Positions 38,980 to 60,911 of a DNA stretch of 64,000 bases are shown here, in pieces; positions within the stretch are counted from its first letter, which is position 1; each line of letters starts with the position of its first letter. A program made the translations under genes and the position numbers. The DNA lies in contig NZ_CP016268.1 in the NCBI RefSeq assembly GCF_001677435.1, forward strand, positions 1-64,000, read 5' to 3'. The notes under the pieces are model-generated. The model was given only the letters and a program-made list of their open reading frames with translations, searched no databases and was not told where the DNA came from. Origin of the DNA: Woeseia oceani. GTDB lineage: Bacteria; Pseudomonadota; Gammaproteobacteria; Steroidobacterales; Woeseiaceae.

Positions 38980-39574
38980 GTAACTTCATTCCACCTTGGA
39001 ATAATGTATTGCGAAACATCTCGTATCTTGTGCCGGAACGCTTGTCCATTATATGTACAAGTTGTTTGAAGTCGTCAAGACAATAAAAGTCACAAACGAT
39101 TTCCCAAAAATAATAATTCGTCAGCAAAATTCAGAAGCTGCCGGGAGCTAACTCGCACCTGATATTGATAGCAACGGACAGCCGTTATGCGCACAGAACA
39201 GTTACGTCACACCTTAATGCTGAATGCTCTTTTTGTTCGTCAGCAGCATTGCCCATCATCACGACGGCGCGTCGCCGGCGCAATCATAGCGTTCGAATGA
39301 ACGACGCGGGGCGCCAGTCTTTGTTCAGTAGACCTGACAAGTACCCTCAGCGTCTATCCGTCGCGTCAAATATCTTCATCTTGTTATCCGGACGCCGCGC
39401 CAATCTGAATCGTTCGGCCATGCTCTGAGATCGCAAGACATTACCGAGATACACCGTACCCATTGAAATTGGAAATAGTCATCACGAAACGGACATGCTT
39501 GCGGTATCGGAACTCCTGAACACCCGTTGTTCCGAAACAGTCGCGATGCAGGTCACCGCTTGAAAGGAGAAAAC
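38980..39574. other. Long gene-free divergent gap between lysR and the NCS1 permease gene
   Basis: The 595 bases are visibly more AT-rich near 39040-39130 than the flanking genes and contain no frame that looks coding. They hold the LysR-type dyad at 38988-39002. A good Shine-Dalgarno AAAGGAGA sits just before the permease start. I see no promoter strong enough to name. Confidence 0.5.
38988..39002. promoter_or_regulatory. Perfect dyad, likely LysR operator
   Basis: ATTCC-ACCTT-GGAAT is a perfect 5-5-5 inverted repeat and satisfies the T-N11-A rule of LysR sites (T at 38989, A at 39001). It lies nine bases upstream of the lysR start codon, the usual place for autorepression. Confidence 0.55.
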
Positions 39575-41194
39575 ATGTCTGCTCCAGGTCGAGATCTTGT
39601 ACCGCTCGAGATTAGTTACACCGATGATCCACGTGTTGTGAAGGAAGCCGCCACCGAGGATTACACTACCCACGTAGTCCCGTACTCTTGGCGCAGTAGC
39701 AAGAAATCTCTTTCCATGTCGTGGTCTTCGCTGGTCAGCGGCATTTTCTACCTCGTAACCGCCGCGACGATTGCCAGTGTCGTAGGTACTGTGGATACCC
39801 TGATCGGTATTGTCCTCGCGTGTACCGCATTCGGGGTCCTGGGTCATGTAATTTCGAAGTACTCTGCACAAACAGGACTGACTGTCGCGTTGATCTCGCA
39901 ACGGCTGTTTGGCGCATCCGGATCCATAGTTGCGCCGTTAATCCTGACCGCGACGGCCATGTACTACGCCGTCTTCGAAAGTACGATGATTGCGCACGCT
40001 TTCGACTCCTATTTCGGTGGACTGGATATTCGCGTCTGGTATGCCGTCGCCGTGTTGATGAACCTGCCCCTGGTTATGGGCGGCATACGACGCTGGATGG
40101 ACAAGTACAATGCGCTGTTGCTGCCGATTTACTGGGCGGGACTCATTATTGTTGTAGCGATGGCCGCTGCCCGCTTCGATACTGCGGGTTGGCTGACACA
40201 CATGCCGTCCTCTGCCCCTGATCTCAATGCGCCCGGCTGGTTGTACGCGTTCTTCGTCTACCTTGGTGTGCTTGTACTGATGATGTTCACCGTTGATTTC
40301 GCTCGCTTTGGCAAAGTGGAAGATGCGAAGTTTAACGGCGTAGTCACCTTTGGCCCGGTGTTCTACGCGTTTTGTTATCTTGGTAACGGTTTGCTTGGCA
40401 TTTACATCGCTTACGCCGCAGGCCTGTCCGGAGAAGTTTCTACAGCAGGTATCGTGAATTTCATCGTGACGCTTATGGGCGGCTGGGGCTTGATTCTGGT
40501 GTGGGTCACTCAGGCACGCATCAACACCGCCAACTTCTATGTTGCATCAACCAACATGGAGGATCTCTGGGCAAGACTGTTCCGCCACAAGATATCGCGG
40601 GTTGGCGCGGTGATGGTCTGCGGCGTCATTGTCTACGCCTGCATGCTCACCGACGTACTCAGCTATTTGTTCGTTGCACTCGCGTGGCAGGGAGCATTTA
40701 TCGCATCCTGGGTGGCGATCATGCTTATCCATGTCATCCGGGCGAAGGAAGAGCTTACTGAATTCCGCACTGGCCGCCTTGCCAGCTTCAGTGCCGGTGC
40801 GTGGATCTGGATTGGCAGCTCACTGTTTGGTGTTCTGTTCTATGAGTACGGCGGTTCTGCCGGTATCGTCTGGTCGACCCCGGTCACGTTCATCATTAGT
40901 GGTTTCCTGTATGCAATGACCTACGAGGTTCAGCGCAGAAAGATTCTGCTGCAGCGCGCCGGTGATCCACGCAACGAAGTCAATAATGTCTGGGAAGCCC
41001 GCGTGAAATGCCACGTGTGTGACCACAGTTATATCGCCATCGAAATGGATCGGGACCCCAGTACTGAGGGCAGTCCGGCGATTTGTCTGGCCTGTTCAAG
41101 GATAAATCTGAGCTACCGCCGGGCCTGTATCGCCGAACACGAACGCACTGTAATCGGCAGAGCGTCAACCACGCCTGCGGAGCTGCCAACGTAA
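39575..41194 (+). CDS. NCS1-type nucleobase/hydantoin permease with C-terminal Cys4 tail
   Basis: The 539-residue protein has about twelve hydrophobic segments and NCS1 (nucleobase:cation symporter-1/CodB-like) features such as the early SWSSLVSGIFYLVTAATIA helix and VDFARFGKVEDAKFNGVV. Such carriers import cytosine, allantoin, hydantoins or related compounds with a cation. After the last helix, a soluble tail of about 80 residues carries C479-H-V-C482 and C504-L-A-C507, a zinc-ribbon-like pattern I do not associate with this family. The ATG at 39575 has AAAGGAGAAAAC upstream; the frame is open a little further. It faces the LysR gene and is followed by two hairpins. Confidence 0.8.
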   Translation: MSAPGRDLVPLEISYTDDPRVVKEAATEDYTTHVVPYSWRSSKKSLSMSWSSLVSGIFYLVTAATIASVVGTVDTLIGIVLACTAFGVLGHVISKYSAQTGLTVALISQRLFGASGSIVAPLILTATAMYYAVFESTMIAHAFDSYFGGLDIRVWYAVAVLMNLPLVMGGIRRWMDKYNALLLPIYWAGLIIVVAMAAARFDTAGWLTHMPSSAPDLNAPGWLYAFFVYLGVLVLMMFTVDFARFGKVEDAKFNGVVTFGPVFYAFCYLGNGLLGIYIAYAAGLSGEVSTAGIVNFIVTLMGGWGLILVWVTQARINTANFYVASTNMEDLWARLFRHKISRVGAVMVCGVIVYACMLTDVLSYLFVALAWQGAFIASWVAIMLIHVIRAKEELTEFRTGRLASFSAGAWIWIGSSLFGVLFYEYGGSAGIVWSTPVTFIISGFLYAMTYEVQRRKILLQRAGDPRNEVNNVWEARVKCHVCDHSYIAIEMDRDPSTEGSPAICLACSRINLSYRRACIAEHERTVIGRASTTPAELPT

Positions 41195-45101: not shown

Positions 45102-45185
45102 GCGACAGAAATCGAGAATAAGGGGAAGGGGGTTCGAGCAGCTATCCGTGCTCGGATTATTCACTTGATAGTGGGGAAAATTAAG

Positions 45186-48104
45186 ATGATTCGAATGCAT
45201 GCCATTGAACAGCTCGTGGCAAAAAAAGAGCAAAGTTCCAGGCCTGACACTCAGCTAAAAACAATTAGCAAAGTGTTCTTACTGTTAGCTGCGGCATCGC
45301 TAACCGGACCACGACTGAGCTACGCGCAGTCAGCCGACACCAGCGACGATCAATCGGCAGCAGAAGACAGAGCAATAGAACAAATCACCGTAACCGGCAC
45401 ACGTATTTCCCGTGTTGACGGCTACGAAGATCCGACGCCTGTATCCATAATGAGTGACGAAACGCTGAACTCATTTGGCTCGGAGAACATTGCCGAAGCC
45501 GTGAATACGCTTCCAGTATTTGCAGGTAGTTACACGCCGGGCTCAAGTATCCAGAACGCGAGTTCTGGTACTGCGGCAATGAACATCCTGAACCTCCGCA
45601 GTCTGGGTACGAACCGGACGCTGGTACTTCTCGACGGCAGGCGCGTTGTTCCTTCTGTCATGGAAGGCACCATTGACGTCAACAACATCCCGCAGAACCT
45701 GGTAAAACGAGTCGAAGTAGCGACCGGTGGTGCATCTGCTGTATACGGCTCTGACGCTGTTGGCGGTGTGGTTAACTTCATCCTCGACAAAGAATACACA
45801 GGCCTCAAAGGCAGTGTGTCAGGTGGCGCAACGGGTTACGGCGACCGTGAAAACATCGGTGCATCACTGACCGGCGGCATGGATTTCGCTGGCGGTCGCG
45901 GGCATGTCGTAGCGAACGTTGCTTACAAAACGGCTGACGGTATTGCGATCAACGACCGCCCCTGGAACCTGAAGGGCTGGCAGTTCATGTACAACCCGAA
46001 CTACACGCCAACCAACGGTCAGCCAGAGCGTATCCTTCTTGATCAGGTCGCGACCAGCAACGGTATCGCAGGCGGCATCATCACGAACACGGCGCTCCGC
46101 GGTACGGCATTCGGGGACGGCGGCACGCCTTATCAGTTCGTGTACGGTGATCTGGTTTTCGACCCGGACATGCGCGGTGGCGACTGGAAGAAGGCTGATG
46201 TGCGCGGCACAAGAGCTGGTCAGACTTTGGCTCCAGAGGCGGAGAATCGCAATTTATTCACGCACGCCAATTATCAGATCAACGATAATCTTGAAGTCTA
46301 TGCAGAGCTAAGCTCCGACTACAGCAAGACTTACAACTGGGCTTACTCGCTCGAGTGTAACGGCTGCATAACGATCCAGGACGATAACCCGTTTATTCCA
46401 GCAAGTGTTGCCACCGAAATGGCGGCGCAAGGCATAACGGAGTTCCGGCTGGGTACCCAGCATCCCGACCTTGGAATTATCGGCACCGATGGCGAGCACG
46501 AAGTAAATCGTTTGGTACTGGGTGCCAATGGTCTGTTTGATGCCTTTGGTTCCAACTGGAGCTGGGACGCGTATTACACGAAAGGTGTTTCCAAGCACAC
46601 GGAAATTGCCGACCACGCGCATTACATGCCCAATGTCGCCCTTGCACTGGATGCAGTTCGCGATCCTGTGACCAACGAAATCGTTTGTCGCTCCACCCTT
46701 ACCGATCCGACCAACGGTTGTGCGCCATACAACCCAATGGGTATCGGCGTAAACACGCAAGCGGCAGTTGATTTCATTGAAGGTGCAGGCGTCAGAGCGT
46801 TCCGCAAGCAAGAGATCACTCAGGACGCGGCTGCATTCACAGTTTCTGGCGAACCGTTCTCCGTCGCGGCAGGCCCGATCTCAGTAGCAGCCGGACTCGC
46901 TTACAAAAAGGACTCCGTCGAAGGCGAGAATGATCCGTACTCACGCGATCGTGACTGGTACATCGGCGGCTACGGTGTTGCCAACGGCAGCATTGATTCG
47001 ACCGAGATCTATATGGAAACGGTTGTGCCGGTCCTTCGTGATGTCTCGTGGGCCGACTCACTGGATCTCAATGGCGCCGTCCGGGTAACGGATTACAGCA
47101 CCTCCGGCAATCTGACGACGTGGAAAGTTGGCGCCACCTACCAGCCGGTGGAAGGCGTACGGTTCCGCGCCACGCAGTCGCGAGATGCCCGAGCCCCCAA
47201 CCTGGCCGAGCTGATCAGCGAAGGCGGCGGCGGCATTGTTTCGGGCATCAACCCGTTCACCGGCGATCCGCTGATCCTGATTCCTGCACCCCGTACCGGT
47301 AACCCGAACCTCGTGCCGGAACTGGCCGATGCGACCGGCGTAGGTATTGTTCTCCAGCCGAACTTCATGCCGGAATTCAGCCTGTCCTTCGACTACTGGG
47401 CGGTGGAAATCGAAGATTCAATCGATACGCTGTCCTTGCAGGAAACGCTCGATCGATGCTTCCTCGGCAACCAGCGCTTCTGTGATGCGATTGACTTCGT
47501 TCCCGGCACTCAGGACATTACCGAGGTCAGACGTTCACCGTTTAACTACGTCGAGGAAACGGCAAAGGGCTACGACATTGAAGCCTCCTACAACCTGCCG
47601 ATACTGGACGGTAACCTGCAAGCGCGTGTCCTCATGTCACGTTACCTTGAAAGAACCACCAACGACGGTAGCGGAGTAATCCGGGAAACCGCAGGTGAGA
47701 ACAGCGGTAGTGAGCCGCCGAACTGGCGTCTGAATGCGAGCCTGTCTTATGCCACAGAGCCGATGATGATTTCGGTTTCGGCGCGTGGCATCAGCAGCGG
47801 TGTTTATGACAACCGGTACATCGAATGTAATTCGTTCTGCCCACCATCAACGGCAGCGCACCGGACGACGAGTGACAATGGCATCGCCAGTCAGTTCTTC
47901 TTCGATGCGGCATTCAGTTACAAAGTACCGTTCGGTGATAGTGAGGTTGATCTGTTCCTGAACATTCGCAACGTTCTTGATACTGATCCGACCGTTGTAG
48001 CGGCAGATCCCGGCTCTGACGGCTTTTTCTACTCACCGGTGAATCACGCGCTCTATGACTACCTTGGCCGCGTATTCCAGGGTGGCTTCCGGGTTGAGTT
48101 TTAA
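45186..48104 (+). CDS. TonB-dependent outer-membrane receptor
   Basis: The 972-residue protein has a long signal region with hydrophobic core VFLLLAAASLTG and cleavage near SYAQS. A TonB-box-like EQITVTGTRI follows, then a plug domain (LGTNRTLVLLDGRRVVPSVM, GGASAVYGSDAVGGVVNFIL) and a C-terminal 22-strand barrel ending in VFQGGFRVEF with the terminal phenylalanine of outer-membrane proteins. The style is the Caulobacter/marine type that imports large or scarce organic compounds. GGGGA precedes the ATG at 45186; a TTG seven codons earlier is possible. The substrate may be the compound metabolised by the adjacent oxidase and reductase. Confidence 0.93.
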   Translation: MIRMHAIEQLVAKKEQSSRPDTQLKTISKVFLLLAAASLTGPRLSYAQSADTSDDQSAAEDRAIEQITVTGTRISRVDGYEDPTPVSIMSDETLNSFGSENIAEAVNTLPVFAGSYTPGSSIQNASSGTAAMNILNLRSLGTNRTLVLLDGRRVVPSVMEGTIDVNNIPQNLVKRVEVATGGASAVYGSDAVGGVVNFILDKEYTGLKGSVSGGATGYGDRENIGASLTGGMDFAGGRGHVVANVAYKTADGIAINDRPWNLKGWQFMYNPNYTPTNGQPERILLDQVATSNGIAGGIITNTALRGTAFGDGGTPYQFVYGDLVFDPDMRGGDWKKADVRGTRAGQTLAPEAENRNLFTHANYQINDNLEVYAELSSDYSKTYNWAYSLECNGCITIQDDNPFIPASVATEMAAQGITEFRLGTQHPDLGIIGTDGEHEVNRLVLGANGLFDAFGSNWSWDAYYTKGVSKHTEIADHAHYMPNVALALDAVRDPVTNEIVCRSTLTDPTNGCAPYNPMGIGVNTQAAVDFIEGAGVRAFRKQEITQDAAAFTVSGEPFSVAAGPISVAAGLAYKKDSVEGENDPYSRDRDWYIGGYGVANGSIDSTEIYMETVVPVLRDVSWADSLDLNGAVRVTDYSTSGNLTTWKVGATYQPVEGVRFRATQSRDARAPNLAELISEGGGGIVSGINPFTGDPLILIPAPRTGNPNLVPELADATGVGIVLQPNFMPEFSLSFDYWAVEIEDSIDTLSLQETLDRCFLGNQRFCDAIDFVPGTQDITEVRRSPFNYVEETAKGYDIEASYNLPILDGNLQARVLMSRYLERTTNDGSGVIRETAGENSGSEPPNWRLNASLSYATEPMMISVSARGISSGVYDNRYIECNSFCPPSTAAHRTTSDNGIASQFFFDAAFSYKVPFGDSEVDLFLNIRNVLDTDPTVVAADPGSDGFFYSPVNHALYDYLGRVFQGGFRVEF

Positions 48105-49016: not shown

Positions 49017-49922
49017 TTAGCGTGCGTCTTGTGCAATCGCCTGACTGATCGCTTCGACCGTTGCTGTGGCCCGGTAGTCGATCAGCCTTTTGCCCCACGC
49101 CACGGTCTGGTCTTTGTCGGCAATGGAAACCCCGTCTATGGTGGCAAGGCCGGCACTCACCCGTTCTTTCCAGCGTACGGTATCAGGGTCTGTCACCATC
49201 ATGATCATCGCCACAGTGGCGTCATCGTGCACCCCGTCACTGACGCCTGGCTTCTGCACACCTTCCGCAACGAGCAGGTCTTCTACGGGGCCCCAGCTCC
49301 GGTAGTACTCCGGAATGTACAGAACAGTTTTCGATCCCCATGCCGTGTTCAACGAATCCGCAACGGATTTCAACCCAGGACCGACGCTCCCGCCGTTGTC
49401 ACTGATAAGCACGATATGTTCGAAACCGTGAGCCTTCATACTGCGCACCGTGTCGGTCACCAGGGCTTCGAACGTGCTCTGTTCAACGCTGATCGTACCA
49501 ACCGTGTCCATGTGACCCGACTTGGTTTCTATGTCGCCTTCCGGAACGAACTTGATCACCGGCGCACATAATGCGTTGCCCAGCTTCCGCGCAATCGCGT
49601 CGCAAGTCGATTGCAGGATGTAATTGTGTTTTCCAAGAGCGGTCCATGGTCCGTTCGGCTCCACTCCGCCGGTCGGGATGATAATCGTCTTCTTGCCAGC
49701 GGCCATGGCATCCCGCACATCCATCCAGGTCATCTCTTCAATCCAGACGGTGTCGACTCTGGGCAAAGGATTGGGTGTCTCGTTGCAGTTATACCGGTTT
49801 TTCTTGCACGCAACGCCATCCGCTGAACGTGGATCGATCTTCCGTTCCGCGTTCGCTGTAAACGCAAAAGCCATGCAACAACAAATGCTCACGGATACAA
49901 CGAATTTTCTTACGATACTCAT
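49017..49922 (-). CDS. Exported creatininase-fold protein with altered metal-ligand positions
   Basis: The 301-residue protein has a signal peptide (FVVSVSICCCMAFAFTANA) and then the creatininase (creatinine amidohydrolase) family core: IIIPTGGVEPNGPWTALGKH, SGHMDTVGTIS and GFEHIVLISDNGGSVGPGL. Typical members use E-x-H, an aspartate, a histidine and a glutamate to bind two metals. Here the first motif reads E-P-N rather than E-Q-H, the NGHGGN-like motif reads DNGGS, and the HAGE-like motif reads HDDA. It may bind metal differently or have another activity. Export is also unusual. ATG 49922 is preferred; a GTG lies two codons upstream. Confidence 0.75.
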   Translation of the reverse strand: MSIVRKFVVSVSICCCMAFAFTANAERKIDPRSADGVACKKNRYNCNETPNPLPRVDTVWIEEMTWMDVRDAMAAGKKTIIIPTGGVEPNGPWTALGKHNYILQSTCDAIARKLGNALCAPVIKFVPEGDIETKSGHMDTVGTISVEQSTFEALVTDTVRSMKAHGFEHIVLISDNGGSVGPGLKSVADSLNTAWGSKTVLYIPEYYRSWGPVEDLLVAEGVQKPGVSDGVHDDATVAMIMMVTDPDTVRWKERVSAGLATIDGVSIADKDQTVAWGKRLIDYRATATVEAISQAIAQDAR

Positions 49923-50499
49923 AAACACTTATCTCCAGGTCAAAATCGGCACGGGGTTGGCCGCGAACTATGGCTACATCGTTAATCGGCCCCAGTGACT
50001 CGATACGTCTGGCGGCGGACTCTAGCGTTAGGCTGGCATGCTGTATGCTCAGGACGAACAACGGTATCCGTTCGGCCTTGCAACATACGAATTCGATTTG
50101 TGGAATTTGTTTGTGAAGAGTCTACACATGCACCTGGAGACTGAGAAGAGTCGTTCAGTTGTCTTCGACTGCCGGGTTTTTCCCGAGAGCTTGCGTCGGG
50201 ATTGCAAAATTTTTCGTCGACAAATGCCGGTTGCCGGGCTGTAGCACAACACCACCAACATGGCTGAAAACGGCTCTGCACAAGCGTTGCAAGTCTTCAG
50301 CGCTGGTCACGAGTTGCTTGCCCGGATCGGGATTGCCGGCCGCCAAATGCCGTGCGGAACAGAGCGTGAAACTCAGGAAAATCAGGCTGTTAGTAAATAC
50401 GAGTCATAGTTCATAACTTTTTATCAAGATCGAAGCGGCGATATCGGATAGGGGAACTGATAGCATCCAAGGCCATAGGCGGCTCTACAGGTGAACCAC
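49923..50499. other. 577-base gap before the DUF1592 operon
   Basis: No supported gene. On the minus strand, 50400-50155 reads as a short signal-peptide-like stretch (SLIFLSFTLCSARHLAAGN) leading into a soluble piece, but it lacks a normal start and is only about 80 codons; I regard it as a possible remnant. The region is AT-richer near 50410, where a promoter for the downstream operon could lie. Confidence 0.35.
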
Positions 50500-52263
50500 A
50501 TGGTACCGACGGAAAACGCTCTTGCGCTTCTGTTAAAGCGAAGTTCCAAACCGGACTCACAGTGCTCGGTGAAAGCATGGTTGCGCGGTAGTGCAGTCAG
50601 TCTGCTATCGGCTTTTATTCTCGCCGGCTGTTCCGGCTCCGAACCGGAACCGGAAAGCGCTGGAACGCCACCGCGTGCTTCACTCGTTTCCACTGCTCAG
50701 TACTTCAACACCCTGCGCTACGTGTTTGGCTCCAGTATCGACCTGCAAGTTGAGTTTCCTCCGTTTGAACGCAAGGAAGGTCTCCTGGCCAATGGCGCAG
50801 CGATTGCCGGCGTAAGCAGTTCTCAGCTCGAACAGTTTCAGGCGGCAGGTACGACAGTAGCTGCCCAGGTCGTCGGTCCTACGCACCGCGAGTTCTTGCT
50901 GCCGTGCAAACCGGCAAACCCGAAGTCTGCCGACGAGGCCTGTGCCACCGAATTTCTGTCACAAACCGGTCGACTGTTGGTTCGTCGTCCGTTGACCGAC
51001 ACGGAACTTAACACCCTGGTCGACAACGCCGGGATGGGTGCCGACAAGCTGGAGGATTTCTACGAGGGTCTTGAGATTGCCCTGGAAGCCCTGTTACTCA
51101 GTCCGGAAGTGCTGTTCGTGGTCGAGCATGCCGAGGCCGACCCCGATAATCCCGGGCAACTGCGTCTCGATGCATACTCGCTCGCATCCAGGCTGAGTTA
51201 CTTTTTGTGGGATGCGGCGCCGGACGCCGAGCTGCTCGATGCCGCTGAAAGCGGCGAGTTGCAGACGGAAAGCGGACTTGCCCGCGAGGTTGATCGAATG
51301 CTGGCCAGCCCGAGACTCGTCGCCGGCATGCGGGCGTTCTTCGGCGACATGTTCCACTTCAGCGACTTTCAGACGCTCGCCAAAGACCCAACTATCTATC
51401 CGAATTTCACGGGGGTGACCGCAGCGGCGGCGCAGGAGCAAACCCTGCGGACCGTCATCAATCACCTGTTGACCGAAAACAAAGATTATCGTGACCTGTT
51501 CACGACCCGCGATACCTTCATGACCCGCGAGCTGGCCATTCAGTTCGACATGCCTGCTGGCCCGGGCTGGGTGCCGTATACCCTGCCAGCGGACAGCCCG
51601 CGAGCCGGCCTGTTGACACAAGTCAGTTTCTTGTCGCTGCATTCACACCCCGGGCGCAGCTCACCGACCCTGCGCGGCATGGCATTGCGCGAGCTGCTGT
51701 TGTGCCAGGTTGTCCCGGCCGCACCGGCGAGCGTGGATTTTTCGGTAATCAATAACCCGGACTCGCACTACCCGACGCAGCGCGATCGCGTGAATGCCCA
51801 TCTTGAGACACCCAGTTGCGCCGGCTGCCACAGGATCATGGATCCCATTGGTTTAACGCTGGAGAGCTTCGACGGTGAAGGTCGCTATCGCACCACAGAG
51901 AACGGCGTGCCCATCGATACGACCGGCTCGCTGGACGGCGTTGAATACAGTGATGCCATTGGTCTGGCACATGCGCTGCGTGACAACCCGGGTTTGCCGG
52001 GCTGCCTGGTGCAGCGGGTTTTCGCCTATGGCACGGGCGGACCGGTACAACAACAGGATCGCGCCTACCTGGAACACATGACTGAAGCATTCAAGGCGGA
52101 AGGCTACCAGCTGCGCGATTTGCTCAGATCCATTGTGCTTAGCGACGCCTTCGCAAAAATTAACGAACCTCAAGCTTCGCCACCTGCCGGGCAGAATGAC
52201 GAAGGCCATACAGCCACCCTCTCGCCAATTATCGAAGAAACGCTTGCTGCCAGCGGCGGTTAG
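50500..52263 (+). CDS. DUF1592/DUF1588-type lipoprotein with one c-heme motif
   Basis: The protein has a lipobox (LAGC) after a hydrophobic stretch, then the domain order DUF1595 (about 135-190), DUF1592 (about 205-340), DUF1588 (about 345-455) and DUF1585 (about 475-560), as in the large Planctomycete-type cell-surface or periplasmic proteins. DUF1588 contains CAGCH (about 440-444), a CxxCH heme c attachment motif, in PSCAGCHRIMDPIGLTLESF. Function is unestablished; redox roles on polymers are often guessed. I use ATG 50500 with AGGTG upstream (587 residues); the GTG at 50569 would give a neater lipoprotein signal, MKAWLRGSAVSLLSAFILAGC split over the limit as MKAWLRGSAVS and LLSAFILAGC. It leads a four-gene group. 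Confidence 0.85.
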   Translation: MVPTENALALLLKRSSKPDSQCSVKAWLRGSAVSLLSAFILAGCSGSEPEPESAGTPPRASLVSTAQYFNTLRYVFGSSIDLQVEFPPFERKEGLLANGAAIAGVSSSQLEQFQAAGTTVAAQVVGPTHREFLLPCKPANPKSADEACATEFLSQTGRLLVRRPLTDTELNTLVDNAGMGADKLEDFYEGLEIALEALLLSPEVLFVVEHAEADPDNPGQLRLDAYSLASRLSYFLWDAAPDAELLDAAESGELQTESGLAREVDRMLASPRLVAGMRAFFGDMFHFSDFQTLAKDPTIYPNFTGVTAAAAQEQTLRTVINHLLTENKDYRDLFTTRDTFMTRELAIQFDMPAGPGWVPYTLPADSPRAGLLTQVSFLSLHSHPGRSSPTLRGMALRELLLCQVVPAAPASVDFSVINNPDSHYPTQRDRVNAHLETPSCAGCHRIMDPIGLTLESFDGEGRYRTTENGVPIDTTGSLDGVEYSDAIGLAHALRDNPGLPGCLVQRVFAYGTGGPVQQQDRAYLEHMTEAFKAEGYQLRDLLRSIVLSDAFAKINEPQASPPAGQNDEGHTATLSPIIEETLAASGG

Positions 52264-52313
52264 TAACACCGTGCACCCGCAACGTATTGCCGATTGCAGG
52301 CCAGGAGATAAAC

Positions 52314-53645
52314 GTGAAAAAGTTGACCAGGCGTAAAGCCTTAAAAGGAATGCTGAGCGGTGGTGCCGTAACCGTTGCACTACCATTGCTGGATTGCTTT
52401 TTGAATGACAGTGGCACGGCGCTCGCAGCCGGAGCACCGATGCCGGTGCGGTTCGGTACCTGGGGCTACGGACTCGGTGGCACCTCAAGCATTATGGTGC
52501 CGAAGAAAATCGGTGCCGATTACGACTTGCCCGAGGAAATCGCTTCGTGGGCGCGAGTTCGCGATCACATCAACTTTTACTCGAACACGACGGCCCACAT
52601 GGACGCGTCTCCGAACAACAACCACTTCACAGGTTGGGTCGTCGGCCGATGCGGCATTGCGCCTTCGGGCGGCATACCGAGTGAAACCATCGACACCACC
52701 ATTGCCAATCGCATTGGCAAAACGACGCGCTACATGTCGTTGACGGCGACGGCAACGGGTGACGTCACCAATACCTACAGCTACGTCAACAAGGTCACAC
52801 CAAACCCTGCGGAATGGTCGCCATTGAAATTCTATACGCGCCTTTTCGGGCCGGATTTCCAGGACCCGAATGCGCCCAGCTTCACGCCGGATCCGCGCGT
52901 CATGGTCCGCAAGAGCGTTCTCTCCGGTGTCATGGATCAAACCCAGACATTGTTAAAAACCGTGGGTTCGGAAGACCGTCAACGCATCGATCAGTACTTC
53001 ACCGGGTTGCGCCAGCTTGAGAATCAGTTTGCCCAGCGCCTGACCAAGCCGGAGCCTATTGCCAGCTGCATCGCTCCCGGACAGGCACCTGTCGACCCAC
53101 CCATGAACAAAGAAGTGGCAACCGTGCAGCTGCGGCATCGCATGATGACCGAGCTCATGGTCATGGCTGTCGCCTGTGATCAGACCCGGGTCTTCAACAT
53201 GGCGTTTTCTGCCGCGTTCTCTGCATTGGTCAAGCCGGGCTTCCCGCAGCCGTACCACACCTGCACGCACGAAGACCCGATCGATCCGGACCTCGGTTAC
53301 CAGCCCAATTCATCCTGGTTTACCCGGCGCACCATGGAATCCTGGGCAGACTTCGTTGAGGCCTTTACCAAGGTCAAAGAGGGTGACGGCACCTTGCTCG
53401 ACAATGTCCTCATCTACGCTACGACGGACGTCGGCAATGCGCGAACTCATGCTGTCGATGACATGCCGGTATTCACCGCGGGTCGCGCGGGTGGCAAGCT
53501 GAAGTCCGGACTGCATATCGACCTGAAGGGCGCGTCTCCAACCGTTGTCGGTTATACCGCATTGCGACTGATGGGCGTGGATGTACCGTCGTGGGGCACG
53601 TTGAGCAATCAGACCTCCGAAGTGTTCAACGAAGTTCTCGTGTAA
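52314..53645 (+). CDS. DUF1552 protein, Tat-exported
   Basis: The 443-residue protein begins at GTG 52314 with AGGAG upstream. Its N-terminus TRRKALKGMLSGG fits a twin-arginine signal, followed by a hydrophobic run, so it should be exported folded, perhaps with a cofactor. The DUF1552 family shows PVRFGTWGYGLGG, NNNHFTGWVVGRCG, and the late LDNVLIYATTDVGNARTHA, which resembles a metal-dependent hydrolase/sulfatase-like core. DUF1552 genes regularly follow DUF1592 genes, as here (50 bases), so the two likely form one system. Enzymatic activity is not established. Confidence 0.85.
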   Translation: MKKLTRRKALKGMLSGGAVTVALPLLDCFLNDSGTALAAGAPMPVRFGTWGYGLGGTSSIMVPKKIGADYDLPEEIASWARVRDHINFYSNTTAHMDASPNNNHFTGWVVGRCGIAPSGGIPSETIDTTIANRIGKTTRYMSLTATATGDVTNTYSYVNKVTPNPAEWSPLKFYTRLFGPDFQDPNAPSFTPDPRVMVRKSVLSGVMDQTQTLLKTVGSEDRQRIDQYFTGLRQLENQFAQRLTKPEPIASCIAPGQAPVDPPMNKEVATVQLRHRMMTELMVMAVACDQTRVFNMAFSAAFSALVKPGFPQPYHTCTHEDPIDPDLGYQPNSSWFTRRTMESWADFVEAFTKVKEGDGTLLDNVLIYATTDVGNARTHAVDDMPVFTAGRAGGKLKSGLHIDLKGASPTVVGYTALRLMGVDVPSWGTLSNQTSEVFNEVLV

Positions 53646-53737
53646 ATGTAACGAACGGTTTTGCTAGCGCTGCGCGGAGCGGGTTCCATCCACGGCGTTG
53701 CGGGCATTGATGTTAAGCCAGACAGGAATACGAAGTT

Positions 53738-55186
53738 ATGCGGACACCGGCGAACCAGCTCAGGGTTCTATCTAAAGTCTCACTTGCCATACTTGCGACA
53801 ACCGCGCTGCTCTCCGGCGCTCCCGGCGTAACTGAAGCCGAAGCGGCTATCATCAGTCCGGACAATCCGGAGGCCTTCAAGTATTGGCAGTCTCCGGACA
53901 GCCCTGATCGTGAGCCCTACATTGAAGAACCGATGCCGCCGGGATTCCAGGTTATCGTCAGCCAGTTTGAAGGGCCGGTATTCGCCGATGCCGAGGGGCG
54001 GACACTGTACAAGTGGCCGTTGCGGGCATTACGCAATGGCGCCACCGGGGACCGGGAAGAGAAGCCGTCCAATTGCACTAACGAAGTACTGAAAACCTCG
54101 GCGGGTATGATGAGTCCGTATCCGGCCGATCTGTTGCTGCCTGATCTTGATACCCGCCCGAGTTGCACCGAAGTATGGCCTCCCGTGATTCCGTCGGAAG
54201 GTGCCGAGGAAGTTGGCGGCTGGACCATCATCGAGCGTCAGGACGGTGTACCGCAATGGGCCTATGGTGGCTACCCGTTGTACACCTCGGTTCTCGACAA
54301 ACAGCCGGGCGACGTTAACGGCGGCACGAAAATGTCTAGCTCCAACGATGGCGGTGTCGTGCGTGTGCCCGTAGGGCCGTCACCCGGAATCCCGCCTGAC
54401 TTTGAAGTTATTCAGTCGTCCACCGGGCGGTTGCTCGTCAACAAAGACAAGTACTCGGTTTACACCTGGGACGGTGACGCACCCAATACATCGAACTGCC
54501 ACGCTGACTGTCTGCTGACCTGGACGCCCGTACCGGCGCCGCAGAACGTTGTTGAGCGCTATGGCTGGACTGTCGTTGAACGCTCACCGGGCATCAATCA
54601 GTGGGCATTCCGGGGCAAGCCGCTGTACACCTATAACCACGATCGACGGACCCAGAGTTTCTGGGGTGCTGACATCGAGGGCTGGCACAACGTCTATACG
54701 CAGCGTGACCTGCCGCCGCCCGAGGGTTTCACCGTGCAGGATGTCGAGGCGGGTGGCCAGGTGCTGGCGGACTCGAAAGGCCGTCCTATCTATTTGTACA
54801 ACTGCCGCGATGATTCGCTTGCGCAGCTCGCCTGCGACAACCCCGATTCAACCCAGGCATACCGCCTGGCGATATGCGGTGCAGGCGATCAGGCGGTTTG
54901 CCGCAAGAACTTCCCTTACGTACCCGCAGCACCCGATGCCAAAAGTGTCAGCCGACTCTGGAGTGTTATGGCCATCGACCCTGATACCGGCCATCGCGCC
55001 AGTGCCGGGCAAACCGCAATCCACGTCTGGGCCTACCGTGACCGGCCGGTCTATACCTACAGTGGCGACGAGAGCCGACCTGGCATGACCCTCGGTGACG
55101 GCTACGGAGAATTCACCGGGAAGCGAAATGGATTCAAGGCTTTCGTTCTCCGAGACATTTTTCAGCGCAACAACTTTCGCCGATGA
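53738..55186 (+). CDS. Exported protein with three PF03640-like (Yx[FWY]xxD) repeats
   Basis: The 482-residue protein has a signal peptide (VSLAILATTALLSGAPGVTEA) and then three repeats of the secreted 'lipoprotein 15' type. Repeat 1 has DAEGRTLYKWP and WAYGGYPLYT. Repeat 2 has NKDKYSVYTWDGD, CHADCLLTWTPV and WAFRGKPLYTYNHD. Repeat 3 has DSKGRPIYLYNCRDD and WAYRDRPVYTYSGDE. Cysteines near each repeat (for example CTEVWPPV, CHADCLLTW) probably form disulfides. The family's role is unknown, though aromatic-rich repeats often bind redox partners or surfaces. It lies 92 bases after the DUF1552 gene. Confidence 0.75.
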   Translation: MRTPANQLRVLSKVSLAILATTALLSGAPGVTEAEAAIISPDNPEAFKYWQSPDSPDREPYIEEPMPPGFQVIVSQFEGPVFADAEGRTLYKWPLRALRNGATGDREEKPSNCTNEVLKTSAGMMSPYPADLLLPDLDTRPSCTEVWPPVIPSEGAEEVGGWTIIERQDGVPQWAYGGYPLYTSVLDKQPGDVNGGTKMSSSNDGGVVRVPVGPSPGIPPDFEVIQSSTGRLLVNKDKYSVYTWDGDAPNTSNCHADCLLTWTPVPAPQNVVERYGWTVVERSPGINQWAFRGKPLYTYNHDRRTQSFWGADIEGWHNVYTQRDLPPPEGFTVQDVEAGGQVLADSKGRPIYLYNCRDDSLAQLACDNPDSTQAYRLAICGAGDQAVCRKNFPYVPAAPDAKSVSRLWSVMAIDPDTGHRASAGQTAIHVWAYRDRPVYTYSGDESRPGMTLGDGYGEFTGKRNGFKAFVLRDIFQRNNFRR

Positions 55187-55224
55187 TCCTGGCAACGGGA
55201 TCGCCGGCAGTGACGAGGTCACCT

Positions 55225-56337
55225 ATGAACAAGAAGTCGACAAATGCAACGGGACGGCAAGCAAACGTGTCCCCTTTGCTCCTGGGTACGCTGGCATTCG
55301 GCCTGCTGGCGGCAAGCAGCGCAGCGTTGGCGCAAGCACCTAAAGACGGCCGGATAGGCTACGTCCTGACAAAAAGGGTATGGGCAATCCACGAGTCTGA
55401 ACGTGGCGAGGTCGAGTGTCCGCAAGGCTTCAATACCGGGCCGCGCGAGGAATACGCCATGCTGTTTCCGGAGGACAGTGGCAAGACGTACACCGAGCTG
55501 GAGACCCGGCTCATGCGGGAAGGTCTGGCCTTCCATACCACGGATGAAACGCCGTTACCGTTTTTCGATGCACAAGGCCCAACAGCTTACGGGCTGAACC
55601 TGGATGGCGAAGTAGGCCCGGAAGACTTTACCAACCCGGAAGGCGAGGAAGGCGTCGACAATCAGATGTACCGTGCGATGGGTTGTATCAATGCCTACCG
55701 TACAGACGGCGTTATCTGGTTCTTCGCGACTGACGATATGTACCGGAATGCCTACAACCGCTGGCTGATCGAGCTGACCAATGTAGATGATCTCAGCAAT
55801 GATGACGACGTTACGGTGACGACCTATCGTGGCCTGGACGAGTTGACCCGCGACGGTACCGGCACGGCCTTTATTGCTGGCGCCACCCAGCAGGTAGATA
55901 CGCGTTGGGGCCAGAGATTCATTGAGCAGTTCAAAGGCAAGATCGTCGACGGGGTGCTAACCACGGATCCCGTTGAGTCGATCACCATCCCCTGGTCACA
56001 GCCAGGCGTCAGTACCGGCGTTTACGTAGTCCGCGATCTGCAGCTTAGACTGGATTTGACAGACAAGACTGCGGATGGACTCTGGGCTGGCTATCTTGAT
56101 GTGAATTCGTTCAGTCATCAGCTCAACACGAACTGGGCAACCCATCATCAGAGCTACGGCCAGCTCTCAGCATCGTCGCTGCACCGCGCGGCCCGCCGTC
56201 TGGCAGACGCGTATCCGGACCCGGAAACCGGCAAGAACACGGCGATTTCCACGGCCGTGCATGTGTCATTCGTGCAAGCGCATATCGACCACCCGGATGA
56301 CGACACCCGGGTGGCCGGCCTCGAGGCTCCCCGCTAG
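55225..56337 (+). CDS. Exported protein of unknown function
   Basis: I do not recognise this 370-residue protein. It has a signal peptide (LLLGTLAFGLLAASSAALAQ) and a mature part with no membrane helix. The sequence is rich in aromatic and acidic residues and contains EVECPQGFNTGPREEYAML, MGCINAYRTDGVIWFFATDD, NSFSHQLNTNWATHHQSYGQ and a C-terminal HVSFVQAHIDHPDDD with several histidines. Its place as the last gene of the DUF1592-DUF1552-repeat-protein group, 38 bases after the previous gene, suggests it belongs to that exported system. The frame is open upstream, but ATG 55225 begins at the signal peptide. A bidirectional terminator follows. Confidence 0.7.
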   Translation: MNKKSTNATGRQANVSPLLLGTLAFGLLAASSAALAQAPKDGRIGYVLTKRVWAIHESERGEVECPQGFNTGPREEYAMLFPEDSGKTYTELETRLMREGLAFHTTDETPLPFFDAQGPTAYGLNLDGEVGPEDFTNPEGEEGVDNQMYRAMGCINAYRTDGVIWFFATDDMYRNAYNRWLIELTNVDDLSNDDDVTVTTYRGLDELTRDGTGTAFIAGATQQVDTRWGQRFIEQFKGKIVDGVLTTDPVESITIPWSQPGVSTGVYVVRDLQLRLDLTDKTADGLWAGYLDVNSFSHQLNTNWATHHQSYGQLSASSLHRAARRLADAYPDPETGKNTAISTAVHVSFVQAHIDHPDDDTRVAGLEAPR

Positions 56338-56392: not shown

Positions 56393-56430
56393 AAGGGGGC
56401 GTGACGGTTGACGTCACGCCCCCTTCTTAT
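56393..56430. terminator. Bidirectional intrinsic terminator
   Basis: A 13-bp stem, AAGGGGGCGTGAC (56393-56405) with its exact complement at 56413-56425, closes a seven-base loop that a further G-C pair shortens. It is followed by TTCTTATTT on the plus strand and by TTTTT on the minus strand, serving the convergent genes on both sides. Confidence 0.9.
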
Positions 56431-57875: not shown

Positions 57876-60800
57876 TCAGAATCGGGCCTGAATACTCAGC
57901 CGGACGTAACGCGGTGTCTGCCAGCCATAGGCTGCACCGTACCACTCGTTCGGCGTACCTTCAGACTGTTCAACGTGTTCATTAATTGACGTTGCTTCCT
58001 GAATATCCAGGATGTTGAAGATCTGCAGGTTGGCCGACATGTCCACATCACCGACAAAGAAATCATAGGTCAGTGATGCGTCCAGCGTGGTTAACCAGGG
58101 GGTACGACCGCCGGATCCGCGCGGGTTGAACGTGTAGATTTTGTCCGCTTGCACGTTTGCCGGTGTGCAAGGGCCAACTACGCCCGCGGTGTTACAGGTG
58201 TTGGTGAACAGGTAGAACGTATCACCGTAAGCACCGTAGATATCCGCCGCGTCATCCGGATAGCCTTGCCCGAACAGGTTCAGTGGTCGGCCGCTGGCCA
58301 GCGATGCATTCCAGCCTGCCGTCAACTTGTCGTTGATCTGGTAAGAACCAAAGAACTTGAACACGTGGCGTCGATCGTTTGGCAGGTAGCCGTCCGAGCC
58401 GTCCATCAGCGCCGGGAAGTCGAAGTCCTGGGTGATGCCCGCATCCGGTTGCTGGATGTCGGACTTAACCGCGCCCTCGAAATTGCCGATGCTTTGAGAC
58501 CAGGAGTAAGTAAAGGTGAAGTTGGTCCGCTCACCGGTATGGTCCCATTGCAACTGCACCGCGTTGTACTCATTGCGGCCTTTCGGCAGTTTGATCTGAT
58601 CGGCGGGGTGGAAGCGGGTTACGCCATCGGTATCTTCCCATGTGCCACCGAAGCCAGGATTGACCAGGGTGCAGTAGGTGCCGTTTGCAAGCGGACCGCA
58701 GTAGTCATCCAGTGTGGCGCCAACATCGCGGTTCACGTAACGGACAGACACTTTATTCTCATCCGACAGGTATTTCTCGTAACCCAGAATGAACTCTTCC
58801 TTGAAGAACGGATCCGCCTCCTGCGCCTGGAACTGCGCCTGAGTCGGCGCGGTGCCATCCGAGTTCACAACCGTCGACGTATTTACGTCGCCCGTCACCG
58901 GAACCAGCCCTGTCGGTGCCCCGGTCGCCGGATCAACACCGGTATAGGTGTAATGAGTGGTGGTGTCACTGACGCCCGACGCTACCCGGAAGTTGGTGTT
59001 GTTCGCCACCGGCAGATAGTAACGACCCCAGGTTGAATACACCTTGTCCTGGCCGTTGCCCGTTGGGTCCCAGCTCAAACCTACGCGAGGAGCCCATTCC
59101 TGATCAAAGTCGGTGAACACAACACCCGTACCGCCGATATTGGTCAGCTGGTCTTTGCGGGCGCCGAGGTACAGGACCACGTTGTCATTCAACTGCCACT
59201 CGTCTTCGATGTAATAGGCGGTCAGTTCGCTCTTGAACTTGCCGCCTGACTGGCCGTTGTCAAACAGGCGGTTGTTGACGATCTCTTGCGGGGCACCCGT
59301 CGTGTTGGTGTAGAGCACACCGTTGGTGCCCTGAATCGTGCCATTGGGTGCCAGCGTCGAGTAGGTGTAACGACCACCGCCAATCGGCGAAGACAGGTGG
59401 AAGGTATCCCGGTCCTGCTTGTCCAGGCCTACCCGCACCAGGTGATCGCCGACGGAGTATTCCAGATCCAGGCGAAACTGATCATTCGTGTCACGATTGT
59501 CACCGAACTGGCCGCCAGGACCGCAACCGGTGATCGGCACCGCCGGTGCCGGTGTGCGGTTGTCGGTTACCCGCGGGCACCGGACCACATCGTCGGGTTC
59601 AGTCGTGTACTCGGTTTCGATCGTGCCAAACATCGCGGACACGGTGAAGTCGTCCATGAAAGTGCCGGTGTAGTTGATGCTTGATGCCGTACCGCCCCGT
59701 TTGCGAATGAAGTACGAGTTTGATGTAGAGCTGATCTCGTTGGTTACCGGGTCTTTCGCAAAGTGGGTGTCGATACCGTCACTGCGGTTCGAATAGCCCC
59801 AGGCGCTCAGGCGGTGGTAATCATTGATATCCCAGTCCACCTTGGCACCCCAGAACAGATTGTCCGAACCGGATTTGTCGATCTTGCGGTATTCAGTGTC
59901 GCGGTTGAATTCCGCGGACGGTGAGCCTGCCTGCCAGGAAAAGTTCTGTTGTTCATCGCGCGGGTTGACGATGGCGTAGATAAACAACCGGTCTTCAATG
60001 ATGGGACCGGAGGCTGTCAACCAGTACTCGAACAAGTCATTCTCATCCTTCGTGGTGTCGCGGAATATGCGACCCGTGCCAACCCCGCCCTGGCCGCCGC
60101 CCAGTCCGCCGTTGCCACGCGAGATCTTGCCTTCTTCATAGAGTGATTTTGGTTCTATCGCGGCGCCGATACCGAACTCCCACTCATTGCCGCCGCTCTT
60201 GGTGACCGCATTCAACACGCCGCCGGTACTACGACCGTACTGTGCCGAGTAACCGCCGGTCTTGACCTGGAACTGCTGGTAGAACTCGAACGGCACGGCA
60301 CCGCAACCGAGGCCCTGGCTGGTGTTGGTGACTTCAAGACCGTTGATGTAACAGGAGTTCTCGGCGATGGATGAGCCACCGAACGAGGCAAAGCCCGGTC
60401 CGCCACTCAAACCAAACTTGCTTTCGCCGAGTACGACGCCCGGTGCCAGCAAGGAGATGCCCGTCAAAGTCCGGGCTACCGGCATGATGTCTATTTCGGT
60501 TTCGCTGAGCACGAGCCCGGAGTCTGTCGAATACACGTCGCCGGTTAACGCGGTTGCTGTCACCACGATCTCTTCCAGCGAGCCATCCGACACCTCAAAG
60601 CGCGCGACGGTGTTGCCGTTTAGAGCAACGTTGAACTGGCTTTCTGCGACAACATTGCCGTCACTGCTCACTGACACAATGTAGGTGCCGACCGGAAGCT
60701 GGGAGAAACGGAAATCACCGCTCGAATCCACGCTGACATCGCGCGACCGGCCGGTAGCCGTGTGCGTTGCATTGACGGTGAAATTACCGCCGCTGTAGTT

Positions 60801-60911
60801 TTCCAGTGAGCCAACAATGTTACCCGTGGCCTCACCGACTGCGTATGCGGGTACGGTGACGAATAACGCCAGCGCAACGCATAAAGTGCGCATTAGCAAT
60901 CTGATGTTCAT
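57876..60911 (-). CDS. Oar-like TonB-dependent receptor with carboxypeptidase-regulatory-like domain
   Basis: The 1011-residue outer-membrane protein has a signal peptide (TLCVALALFVTVPAYA). Next comes a carboxypeptidase-D-regulatory-like beta domain (TGNIVGSLENYSGGNF, GDFRFSQLPVGTYIVSVSSD), a TonB-box-like EEIVVTATAL, a plug (FGGSSIAENSCYINGLEVTN) and a long barrel ending in PRYVRLSIQARF. This Oar-like architecture is used for uptake or secretion of proteins and peptides in several phyla. The substrate is unknown. A perfect terminator follows and a dyad sits 30 bases before the start. Neighbouring genes do not show a clear partner. Confidence 0.93.
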   Translation of the reverse strand: MNIRLLMRTLCVALALFVTVPAYAVGEATGNIVGSLENYSGGNFTVNATHTATGRSRDVSVDSSGDFRFSQLPVGTYIVSVSSDGNVVAESQFNVALNGNTVARFEVSDGSLEEIVVTATALTGDVYSTDSGLVLSETEIDIMPVARTLTGISLLAPGVVLGESKFGLSGGPGFASFGGSSIAENSCYINGLEVTNTSQGLGCGAVPFEFYQQFQVKTGGYSAQYGRSTGGVLNAVTKSGGNEWEFGIGAAIEPKSLYEEGKISRGNGGLGGGQGGVGTGRIFRDTTKDENDLFEYWLTASGPIIEDRLFIYAIVNPRDEQQNFSWQAGSPSAEFNRDTEYRKIDKSGSDNLFWGAKVDWDINDYHRLSAWGYSNRSDGIDTHFAKDPVTNEISSTSNSYFIRKRGGTASSINYTGTFMDDFTVSAMFGTIETEYTTEPDDVVRCPRVTDNRTPAPAVPITGCGPGGQFGDNRDTNDQFRLDLEYSVGDHLVRVGLDKQDRDTFHLSSPIGGGRYTYSTLAPNGTIQGTNGVLYTNTTGAPQEIVNNRLFDNGQSGGKFKSELTAYYIEDEWQLNDNVVLYLGARKDQLTNIGGTGVVFTDFDQEWAPRVGLSWDPTGNGQDKVYSTWGRYYLPVANNTNFRVASGVSDTTTHYTYTGVDPATGAPTGLVPVTGDVNTSTVVNSDGTAPTQAQFQAQEADPFFKEEFILGYEKYLSDENKVSVRYVNRDVGATLDDYCGPLANGTYCTLVNPGFGGTWEDTDGVTRFHPADQIKLPKGRNEYNAVQLQWDHTGERTNFTFTYSWSQSIGNFEGAVKSDIQQPDAGITQDFDFPALMDGSDGYLPNDRRHVFKFFGSYQINDKLTAGWNASLASGRPLNLFGQGYPDDAADIYGAYGDTFYLFTNTCNTAGVVGPCTPANVQADKIYTFNPRGSGGRTPWLTTLDASLTYDFFVGDVDMSANLQIFNILDIQEATSINEHVEQSEGTPNEWYGAAYGWQTPRYVRLSIQARF

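What the first reader, a model, noticed from the sequence alone, without database searches (positions are those of the whole stretch)
50500..56337. Four-gene exported system: DUF1592 heme lipoprotein, Tat DUF1552, PF03640-repeat protein and an unknown protein
Four consecutive same-strand genes encode exported proteins of unknown function, and the run ends in a strong terminator. One has a c-heme motif, one is Tat-exported, one has three aromatic repeats with cysteines, and one is unrecognised. The set looks like a periplasmic or surface redox/hydrolytic system. This is the best candidate here for an undescribed system.
Basis: inference. Interest (0 to 1): 0.7.

Follow-up and report, generated by a model that had tools for sequence, protein, structure and literature searches.

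The report
Conserved exported redox gene module
Four neighbouring genes for exported proteins of unknown job travel together as one unit in many bacteria, usually near genes for electron carriers or an outer-membrane import channel, so they most likely build a still undescribed redox machine outside the inner membrane.

Summary
Four same-strand exported genes (50500-56337) encode a DUF1592/1588/1585 c-heme lipoprotein (g1), a Tat-exported DUF1552 protein (g2), a PF03640-repeat protein (g3) and a protein without a family (g4), then a terminator-like hairpin. The four genes co-diverge. In the fetched stretches of 62 sets lie a triheme cytochrome c gene (45), an exported creatininase-like gene (26), a TonB receptor (19) or a HiPIP (8). 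Sphingobium has g4-g1-g2 with cytochromes c' and b561 instead. g2 has a predicted alkaline-phosphatase-superfamily fold, but keeps four histidines family-wide and no first-strand aspartate, which weakens the phosphatase reading without excluding it. Best reading: a periplasmic or surface oxidoreductase module with swappable carriers; substrate, metal and electron direction unknown. Steroid catabolism (no KshA) and LPMO donation (no LPMO_10) do not fit this genome. The g1-g2 kind is known and uncharacterised; I found no paper on the module with g3 and g4.

The parts
45165..48104 (+). TonB-dependent receptor (PF00593, PF07715) upstream of the module
   Evidence: homologous receptors (40-46% identity) lie next to the three other copies in this genome
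49017..49928 (-). exported creatininase-like protein (PF02633), divergent
   Evidence: 93.2 bits, cut-off 31.3; a homologue lies in the fetched stretch of 26 of 62 complete sets; two usual metal-ligand positions altered in the alignment to 1q3k (ligand identities recalled)
50500..52263 (+). g1: lipoprotein with DUF1587-DUF1595-DUF1592-DUF1588-DUF1585 and one c-heme motif
51817..51831 (+). CAGCH heme-attachment motif of g1, invariant in alignment A5 (27 rows)
   Evidence: one CxxCH in 61 of 62 g1 members
52314..53645 (+). g2: Tat-exported DUF1552 (HXXSHH) protein, predicted alkaline-phosphatase-superfamily fold
52623..52625 (+). codon of His104 of g2, conserved in 18 of 18 diverse DUF1552 proteins
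53256..53270 (+). codons of His315-x-x-x-His319 of g2 (HTCTH here; the HXXSHH region), both His conserved in 18 of 18
53448..53450 (+). codon of His379 of g2, conserved in 17 of 18
53738..55186 (+). g3: exported protein with four PF03640 (Lipoprotein_15) stretches and 8 Cys
55225..56337 (+). g4: exported protein of no known family, two nearly invariant Cys (ATG at 55183 is an alternative start)
56393..56425 (+). intrinsic-terminator-like hairpin after g4

Best explanation
Shown: g1-g2-g3-g4 is one conserved, co-diverging gene set for proteins with export signals, often near genes for soluble electron carriers or a TonB receptor. Inferred: it is an oxidoreductase module of the periplasm or cell surface. 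A TonB receptor brings in (or the outer membrane presents) a substrate. The DUF1552 protein, an alkaline-phosphatase fold with conserved histidines that probably hold a metal, carries out or assists the chemistry. The single c-heme of the DUF1592 lipoprotein moves electrons between it and a carrier: a triheme cytochrome c, a HiPIP, or cytochrome c' with b561. The Cys-rich PF03640 protein and g4 are structural or substrate-binding subunits. Exported accessory proteins (creatininase-like, HpcH/HpaI-like, metallo-beta-lactamase-like) differ between copies and may act on the product. Direction of electron flow, metal and substrate are unknown. The four paralogous copies here, each with its own diverged receptor, suggest several related substrates.
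For: Four copies in this genome, in the same order. 62 of 92 counted g4 copies in complete order, 62 of 74 with room. Spearman 0.78-0.84 between the distance matrices of the four genes over 62 sets, against at most 0.19 in 200 permutations. Triheme cytochrome c gene in the fetched stretch of 45 of 62 sets and HiPIP in 8; the cytochrome is the next recognised gene upstream of g1 in 33 of 57 sets with room. Other carriers elsewhere: cytochrome c' and b561 in Sphingobium, HiPIP and cytochrome c' in a genome of another class (G610), HiPIP in two Steroidobacter-genus loci. g2 fold and histidines. The only redox measurement found on a relative: the X183 cytochrome domain of Cellvibrio Cbp2D, a DUF1587-bearing protein, is redox-active and reduces LPMOs (PMC8981238, passages); g1 itself has no separate cytochrome domain of that sort.
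Against: 17 of 62 complete sets, the window copy and two others of this genome among them, have no triheme cytochrome or HiPIP gene in the stretch fetched, so a carrier would have to act in trans; 8 of these 17 also show no TonB receptor. Bound metal and heme are motif inferences. The g2 model has mean pLDDT 79; residue-level superposition on a phosphatase site could not be made, and conserved Asp, Ser and Thr residues exist elsewhere in DUF1552 (D127, D226, D363, S201, S/T291), so a hydrolase is not excluded. TonB receptors were seen in only 19 of 62 sets, with a loose profile. In G310 a g3 is followed by another g1-g2 and not by g4. No transcription, protein or phenotype data were found. The distance correlation does not remove organism relatedness.
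Confidence: 0.47

Rival explanations
1. An exported hydrolase system: DUF1552 is a metal-dependent phosphatase, sulfatase or phosphodiesterase, and the cytochrome is a side partner.
For: Predicted alkaline-phosphatase-superfamily fold: Foldseek best E 3.8e-6 against sulfatases; best Z 16.4 against ENPP7, rmsd 3.7 over 245 residues. Conserved Asp, Ser and Thr residues exist (D127, D226, D363, S201, S/T291). Sulfatase genes are often near PSCyt genes in part of the Verrucomicrobia genomes studied (PMC5615132, passages).
Against: In 18 diverse DUF1552 proteins no Asp is kept at the end of the first strand, where the superfamily has a metal ligand (recalled), while His104, 315, 319 and 379 are kept. 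Electron-carrier genes lie near many copies.
Confidence: 0.23
2. Electron donor for lytic polysaccharide monooxygenases or a similar polymer oxidase, like Cellvibrio Cbp2D.
For: Cbp2D carries DUF1587 and cytochrome domains; its X183 domain reduces LPMOs (PMC8981238, passages). Relatives of g1 in two other gammaproteobacteria carry CBM2 and extra cytochrome domains beside a DUF1552 gene. A CBM2-DUF1592 protein is in a table of a lignocellulose study (PMC6004670, one passage).
Against: g1 here has no CBM or extra cytochrome domain. LPMO_10 has no match in this genome and matches in 5 of 29 genomes searched, all Steroidobacter-type, two of them apparently one genome under two handles; none in the two genomes with CBM2-DUF1592 either. 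Other LPMO families were not searched.
Confidence: 0.08
3. A step of steroid or triterpenoid catabolism that takes place outside the inner membrane.
For: Two Sphingobium plasmid copies have KshA-like genes within the fetched flank, one of them with extradiol-dioxygenase-like and flavin-monooxygenase-like genes; hosts include Steroidobacter, Solimonas and Hydrocarboniphaga; a tomato-root Sphingobium degrades steroid saponins (PMC10653915, passages).
Against: KshA has no match in this genome or in any of the 10 g4-bearing genomes among 60 relatives; 4 of 14 named g4 genomes have it. The saponin paper's main text has no occurrence of 'DUF', 'TonB' or 'cytochrome'.
Confidence: 0.08
4. Uptake or handling of a metal, heme or siderophore: TonB receptor with periplasmic redox release of the metal.
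For: TonB receptor near all four copies in this genome; c-heme partner.
Against: No ABC importer or iron regulator was recognised by eye in the gene starts listed for nine loci, but none was searched for; receptor seen in only 19 of 62 sets.
Confidence: 0.08

Closest known systems
PSCyt3 (DUF1588/DUF1592) genes beside unknown genes in Verrucomicrobia (PMC5615132)
   Same: Same cytochrome domain set as g1; the paper says PSCyt2 and PSCyt3 genes are usually next to two families of unknown genes and that nothing is known of their function (passages). That the partner of PSCyt3 is DUF1552 is my inference: the search index counts DUF1552 3 times, the main text none.
   Different: No PF03640 protein, g4, triheme cytochrome, HiPIP or TonB receptor is mentioned in the passages seen.
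Cbp2D of Cellvibrio japonicus (PMC8981238)
   Same: Redox protein with DUF1587 and c-type cytochrome domains (passages); genes of like architecture (CBM2-cytochrome-DUF1592) lie beside DUF1552 in two genomes.
   Different: CBM2 and extra cytochrome domains absent from g1; the next gene after DUF1552 in those two genomes is an FCSD-like flavoprotein, not g3/g4.
Alkaline phosphatase superfamily (sulfatases, NPPs)
   Same: Predicted fold of g2 over residues 40-443.
   Different: Four conserved histidines and no kept first-strand aspartate.
PF03640 / SCO0930-family lipoproteins
   Same: g3 carries four PF03640 stretches.
   Different: SCO0930 model 78 bits against a cut-off of 275; no function found in print.

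Membership tests
PSCyt3/DUF1592 cytochromes | DUF1592, DUF1588 and DUF1585 domains above Pfam cut-off | tested here: met
   113, 97 and 55.7 bits against 23.3, 27 and 25.8
PSCyt3/DUF1592 cytochromes | CxxCH heme motif | tested here: met
   61 of 62 members have one
PSCyt3/DUF1592 cytochromes | covalently bound heme | not testable with these tools
   needs purified protein
DUF1552 (HXXSHH) | Pfam model above cut-off | tested here: met
   139.7 bits, cut-off 30
DUF1552 (HXXSHH) | literal HXXSHH motif (as the Pfam name implies) | tested here: not met
   HTCTHE in the window; the two His of HXXSH are kept, the last H is not; canonical members also vary at the last place
Alkaline phosphatase superfamily | fold | tested here: met
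   Foldseek E 3.8e-6 but TM-scores 0.3-0.4; best Z 16.4, 485 of 1000 chains at Z 8 or more; on a predicted model
Alkaline phosphatase superfamily | metal-binding carboxylates and Ser/Thr/Cys nucleophile | tested here: inconclusive
   no first-strand Asp kept; other conserved Asp/Ser/Thr exist; no residue-level superposition was possible
PF03640 repeat proteins | PF03640 repeats above cut-off | tested here: met
   118 bits, cut-off 24.4, four stretches
LPMO electron-donor system (Cbp2D type) | CBM2 and extra cytochrome domains on the DUF1587/1592 protein | tested here: not met
LPMO electron-donor system (Cbp2D type) | an LPMO in the genome | tested here: not met
   no LPMO_10 match in G000; other LPMO families not searched
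Steroid catabolic cluster | KshA in the genome | tested here: not met
   no match in G000 at E 1e-10
DUF4360 | g4 matches the Pfam model above cut-off | tested here: not met
   16.5 bits against 27; 2 of 90 members match at E 0.1
Porin-cytochrome extracellular electron conduit | outer-membrane porin with multiheme cytochrome | not tested
   MtrCAB-type genes were not searched for; the linked cytochrome has three heme motifs

The most novel reading that the evidence does not exclude
DUF1552 is an alkaline-phosphatase fold turned into a histidine-ligated metal oxidoreductase that works with a DUF1592 c-heme partner. With g3 and g4 it forms a new class of exported oxidoreductase that draws on whichever carrier the host has, serving several TonB-imported substrates through paralogous copies. 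If so, the many DUF1592/DUF1552 pairs of PVC bacteria would be redox enzymes too.
Probability: 0.22. Interest if true: 0.8.

Novelty: new variant of a known kind. Interest (0 to 1): 0.57.

Why it matters
The DUF1592/DUF1588/DUF1552 proteins are an old puzzle of PVC bacteria, with no function found in the papers searched. This module ties the pair to named electron carriers and to two further partners, gives a fold and candidate metal residues for DUF1552, and occurs in cultured genera (Steroidobacter, Solimonas, Sphingobium, Halieaceae), where deletion and biochemistry are feasible. It makes the question 'redox or hydrolase?' directly testable.

Tried and rejected
Steroid link: looked strong on Sphingobium plasmids, but KshA has no match in any of the 10 g4-bearing relatives. 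LPMO link: no LPMO_10 match in this genome. DUF4360 for g4: chance-level. g4 fold: model of mean pLDDT 64.5 from 14 rows; no Foldseek match at E 0.001; best Z 5.8 (bradavidin, rmsd 3.7 over 104), below the level that means anything; so g4's fold is undetermined, not shown to be new. PDB sequence searches for the four proteins gave no convincing relative. A profile comparison of g2 with the window's own phosphodiesterase failed, although the predicted fold is of that class. The first genome-contig scan with the single g4 found none; the alignment found 148. g4 in plain samples is rare: 1 of 274 class genomes (single protein), 11 of 246 order genomes, 2 of 398 phylum genomes.

Rows dropped before the count: nine loci (L022-L030) that repeat contigs already among L032-L110, and g4 matches of 700 bases or less. 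Greedy ORF calling apparently made false antisense ORFs in GC-rich loci; the order was therefore redone with profiles. Those profiles were built from the same loci, so members match by construction.

Full report
What is there. Four genes follow each other on the + strand: g1 50500-52263, g2 52314-53645, g3 53738-55186, g4 55225-56337 (an ATG at 55183 is possible). g1 is a lipoprotein with the five PSCyt3/PSD domains and one CAGCH motif; g2 is a DUF1552 protein with a twin-arginine-like start; g3 has four PF03640 stretches and 8 Cys; g4 has a signal-peptide-like start and no known family. A hairpin of 14 pairs follows (-31.3 kcal/mol, 0 of 200 shuffles as stable), although the count of terminator-like sites in the region is not above chance. 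Signal-type readings (lipobox, twin-arginine, signal peptide) rest on recalled motifs, not on a predictor.

Four copies in one genome. The genome is one contig of 4.06 Mb. All 4 DUF1585 hits, all 4 DUF1552 hits and all 4 g4 hits fall into four sets with the same gene order. PF03640 also occurs in one other 160-residue frame. Relative to the window copy, identities in the three others are 63, 65 and 56% (g1), 70, 71 and 57% (g2), 63, 60 and 53% (g3), 59, 53 and 49% (g4): the copy of L011 is the most distant in every gene. The TonB receptors beside them show the reverse (40, 41, 46%), so the four genes move as a unit and the receptor varies apart. Contig sizes of sister genomes match records titled Woeseiaceae or Woeseia, so the host belongs to that family; Woeseia oceani is my recalled guess, not a result.

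Other genomes. Nine further loci of sister genomes keep the order, two of them with g1 cut by a contig end. A scan of genome contigs with the g4 alignment gave 148 relatives, the best 80 kept as 79 loci: Woeseiaceae, Steroidobacter and Peristeroidobacter, Solimonas, Hydrocarboniphaga, Halieaceae, Pseudohongiella, Kordiimonas, and MAGs labelled Marinimicrobia or Alphaproteobacteria among others. Of 92 g4 copies counted, 62 stand in the complete order, 18 are within 4.8 kb of a sequence end and cannot tell, 4 have g3 only, and 8 have neither in order although there was room (in two of these, L055 and L105, g3 lies beside g4 on the other strand). The distance matrices of the four genes over 62 sets correlate at Spearman 0.78-0.84 (at most 0.19 in 200 permutations), and with the triheme cytochrome at 0.86-0.88 over 36 sets (at most 0.42); organism relatedness was not removed.

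Two kinds of DUF1552. Among 60 relatives, 13 genomes have DUF1552, 41 matches in all. The module's own profile separates two kinds: module members score E 1e-120 or better, canonical ones E 1e-36 or worse. Sixteen of the 41 matches are of the module kind (Pfam scores 106-163 bits). Thirteen of these are in sets with g3 and g4. One is on a 4046-base contig that ends just after g3. Two are on a 5165-base contig of G310 where g2 and a partial g3 match are followed by another g1-g2 and not by g4, a result against a fixed order. Nine canonical loci were examined (L167-L171, L197-L200): 0 of 9 show a g3 or g4 match, though L167, L170, L197 and L198 are short or end near the gene. The other 21 canonical matches were not examined. 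In L168 and L169 the DUF1592 gene carries three CBM2 stretches and extra cytochrome domains and is followed by DUF1552 and an FCSD-like flavoprotein.

Electron carriers. Upstream of g1 the commonest recognised neighbour is an exported protein with three CxxCH motifs (36 of 36 members): 33 of 57 sets with room, 45 of 62 anywhere in the fetched stretch. A HiPIP (PF01355; twin-arginine-like start by eye) is near 8 of 62. In this genome one of four copies (L009) has both; the window copy has neither. 17 of 62 sets show neither, and 8 of these 17 no TonB receptor either. In Sphingobium the order is TonB receptor, divergent AraC regulator, g4, DUF1592, DUF1552, cytochrome c', cytochrome b561; in a genome of another class (G610) HiPIP, g4, g1, g2, cytochrome c', an exported glyoxalase-like protein and a TonB receptor; in two Steroidobacter-genus loci HiPIP, g1, g2, g4, and in another locus of one of those genomes g4, g1, g2, g3, TonB receptor. 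g3 is thus missing in some lineages, gene order varies, and the carriers are swapped. The swapping is the main reason for a redox reading.

Accessory genes. An exported creatininase-like gene is in 26 of 62 fetched stretches and a match of the HpcH/HpaI-like profile in 12; the latter also picks up a metallo-beta-lactamase-like protein, alone or fused. In the window's creatininase-like protein the aligned positions of two usual metal ligands (His36, Asp45; recalled) read Asn and His, so it may not be an ordinary creatininase. For HpcH the best PDB match is weak (E 0.0034).

Fold of g2. The AlphaFold2 model from 62 sequences (pLDDT 79, pTM 0.73) matches sulfatases by Foldseek (E 3.8e-6, TM-scores only 0.3-0.4) and NPP-type phosphodiesterases by VIA-align (Z 16.4, rmsd 3.7 over 245; 485 of 1000 chains at Z 8 or more). 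In an alignment of 18 diverse DUF1552 proteins, five of them canonical, His104, His315 and His319 are kept in 18 and His379 in 17; no Asp is kept at the end of the first strand. Other conserved acidic or hydroxyl residues exist (D363 in 18; D127, D226 and S201 in 17; T or S at 291 in 18) and could not be placed relative to a site. Reading the histidines as a metal site at the place of the phosphatase site is inference. The motif HXXSHH reads HTCTHE in the window.

Function candidates. Steroids: the two Sphingobium copies looked at have KshA-like genes in the fetched flank, but KshA has no match in this genome or in any of the 10 g4-bearing relatives, and matches in 4 of 14 named g4 genomes. 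LPMO donors: Cbp2D of Cellvibrio is a DUF1587-bearing redox protein whose X183 domain reduces LPMOs (PMC8981238, passages), but LPMO_10 has no match in 24 of 29 genomes searched, this one included. The Verrucomicrobia paper calls PSCyt functions unknown and suggests a role in carbohydrate metabolism (PMC5615132, passages). A 2025 Woeseiaceae study was searched for four terms only (PMC12175321, passages); the passages say nothing on this module.

In print. Searches for DUF1592 with DUF1552 (0 papers), DUF1592 (2), DUF1552 (2), PF03640 (2) and related names (18; 13; 2) gave no description of the four-gene set. I saw passages of eight papers and only listings of the rest; subscription papers are not held.

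Verdict. A real, conserved, uncharacterised exported module; most likely an oxidoreductase system; substrate unknown. The DUF1592 kind of cytochrome and its partner gene are known as uncharacterised, so I file it as a new variant of a known kind.

Noticed in passing
window 1-37400: The start of the contig carries YidC, MnmE, MnmG/GidA and ATP synthase subunits, with ParA/ParB-like genes by eye, the usual neighbourhood of a chromosome origin (recalled).
   Followed up: no
window 39527-41194: 555-residue ORF with no Pfam match at E 0.001, although its start looks like a transporter by eye.
   Followed up: no
window 57876-60911: Second TonB-receptor-like gene, with a CarboxypepD_reg domain, on the other strand downstream of the module.
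   Followed up: no
window 49017-49928: Exported creatininase-like protein with two altered metal-ligand positions; a homologue is in 26 of 62 module loci.
   Followed up: partly
L009:994-2709: Metallo-beta-lactamase-like domain fused to an HpcH/HpaI-like domain beside the module copy at 3.05-3.06 Mb of this genome.
   Followed up: partly
L168, L169: CBM2-cytochrome-DUF1592 gene, DUF1552 and an FCSD-like flavoprotein in a row, in genomes without an LPMO_10 match.
   Followed up: partly
G326: A genome of the same order has 14 DUF1552 matches but no g4 match.
   Followed up: no
L059, L036, L061, L084, L173: Tandem or repeated module sets, with extra g3-g4 pairs or g4 fragments.
   Followed up: no
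L010:87-1105: Two ORFs that look by eye like an IS3-type transposase pair just upstream of one module copy in this genome.
   Followed up: no
Sphingobium and Novosphingobium plasmids: Ten of 13 plasmid records hold two g4-like places; only one place in each of three records was looked at.
   Followed up: no
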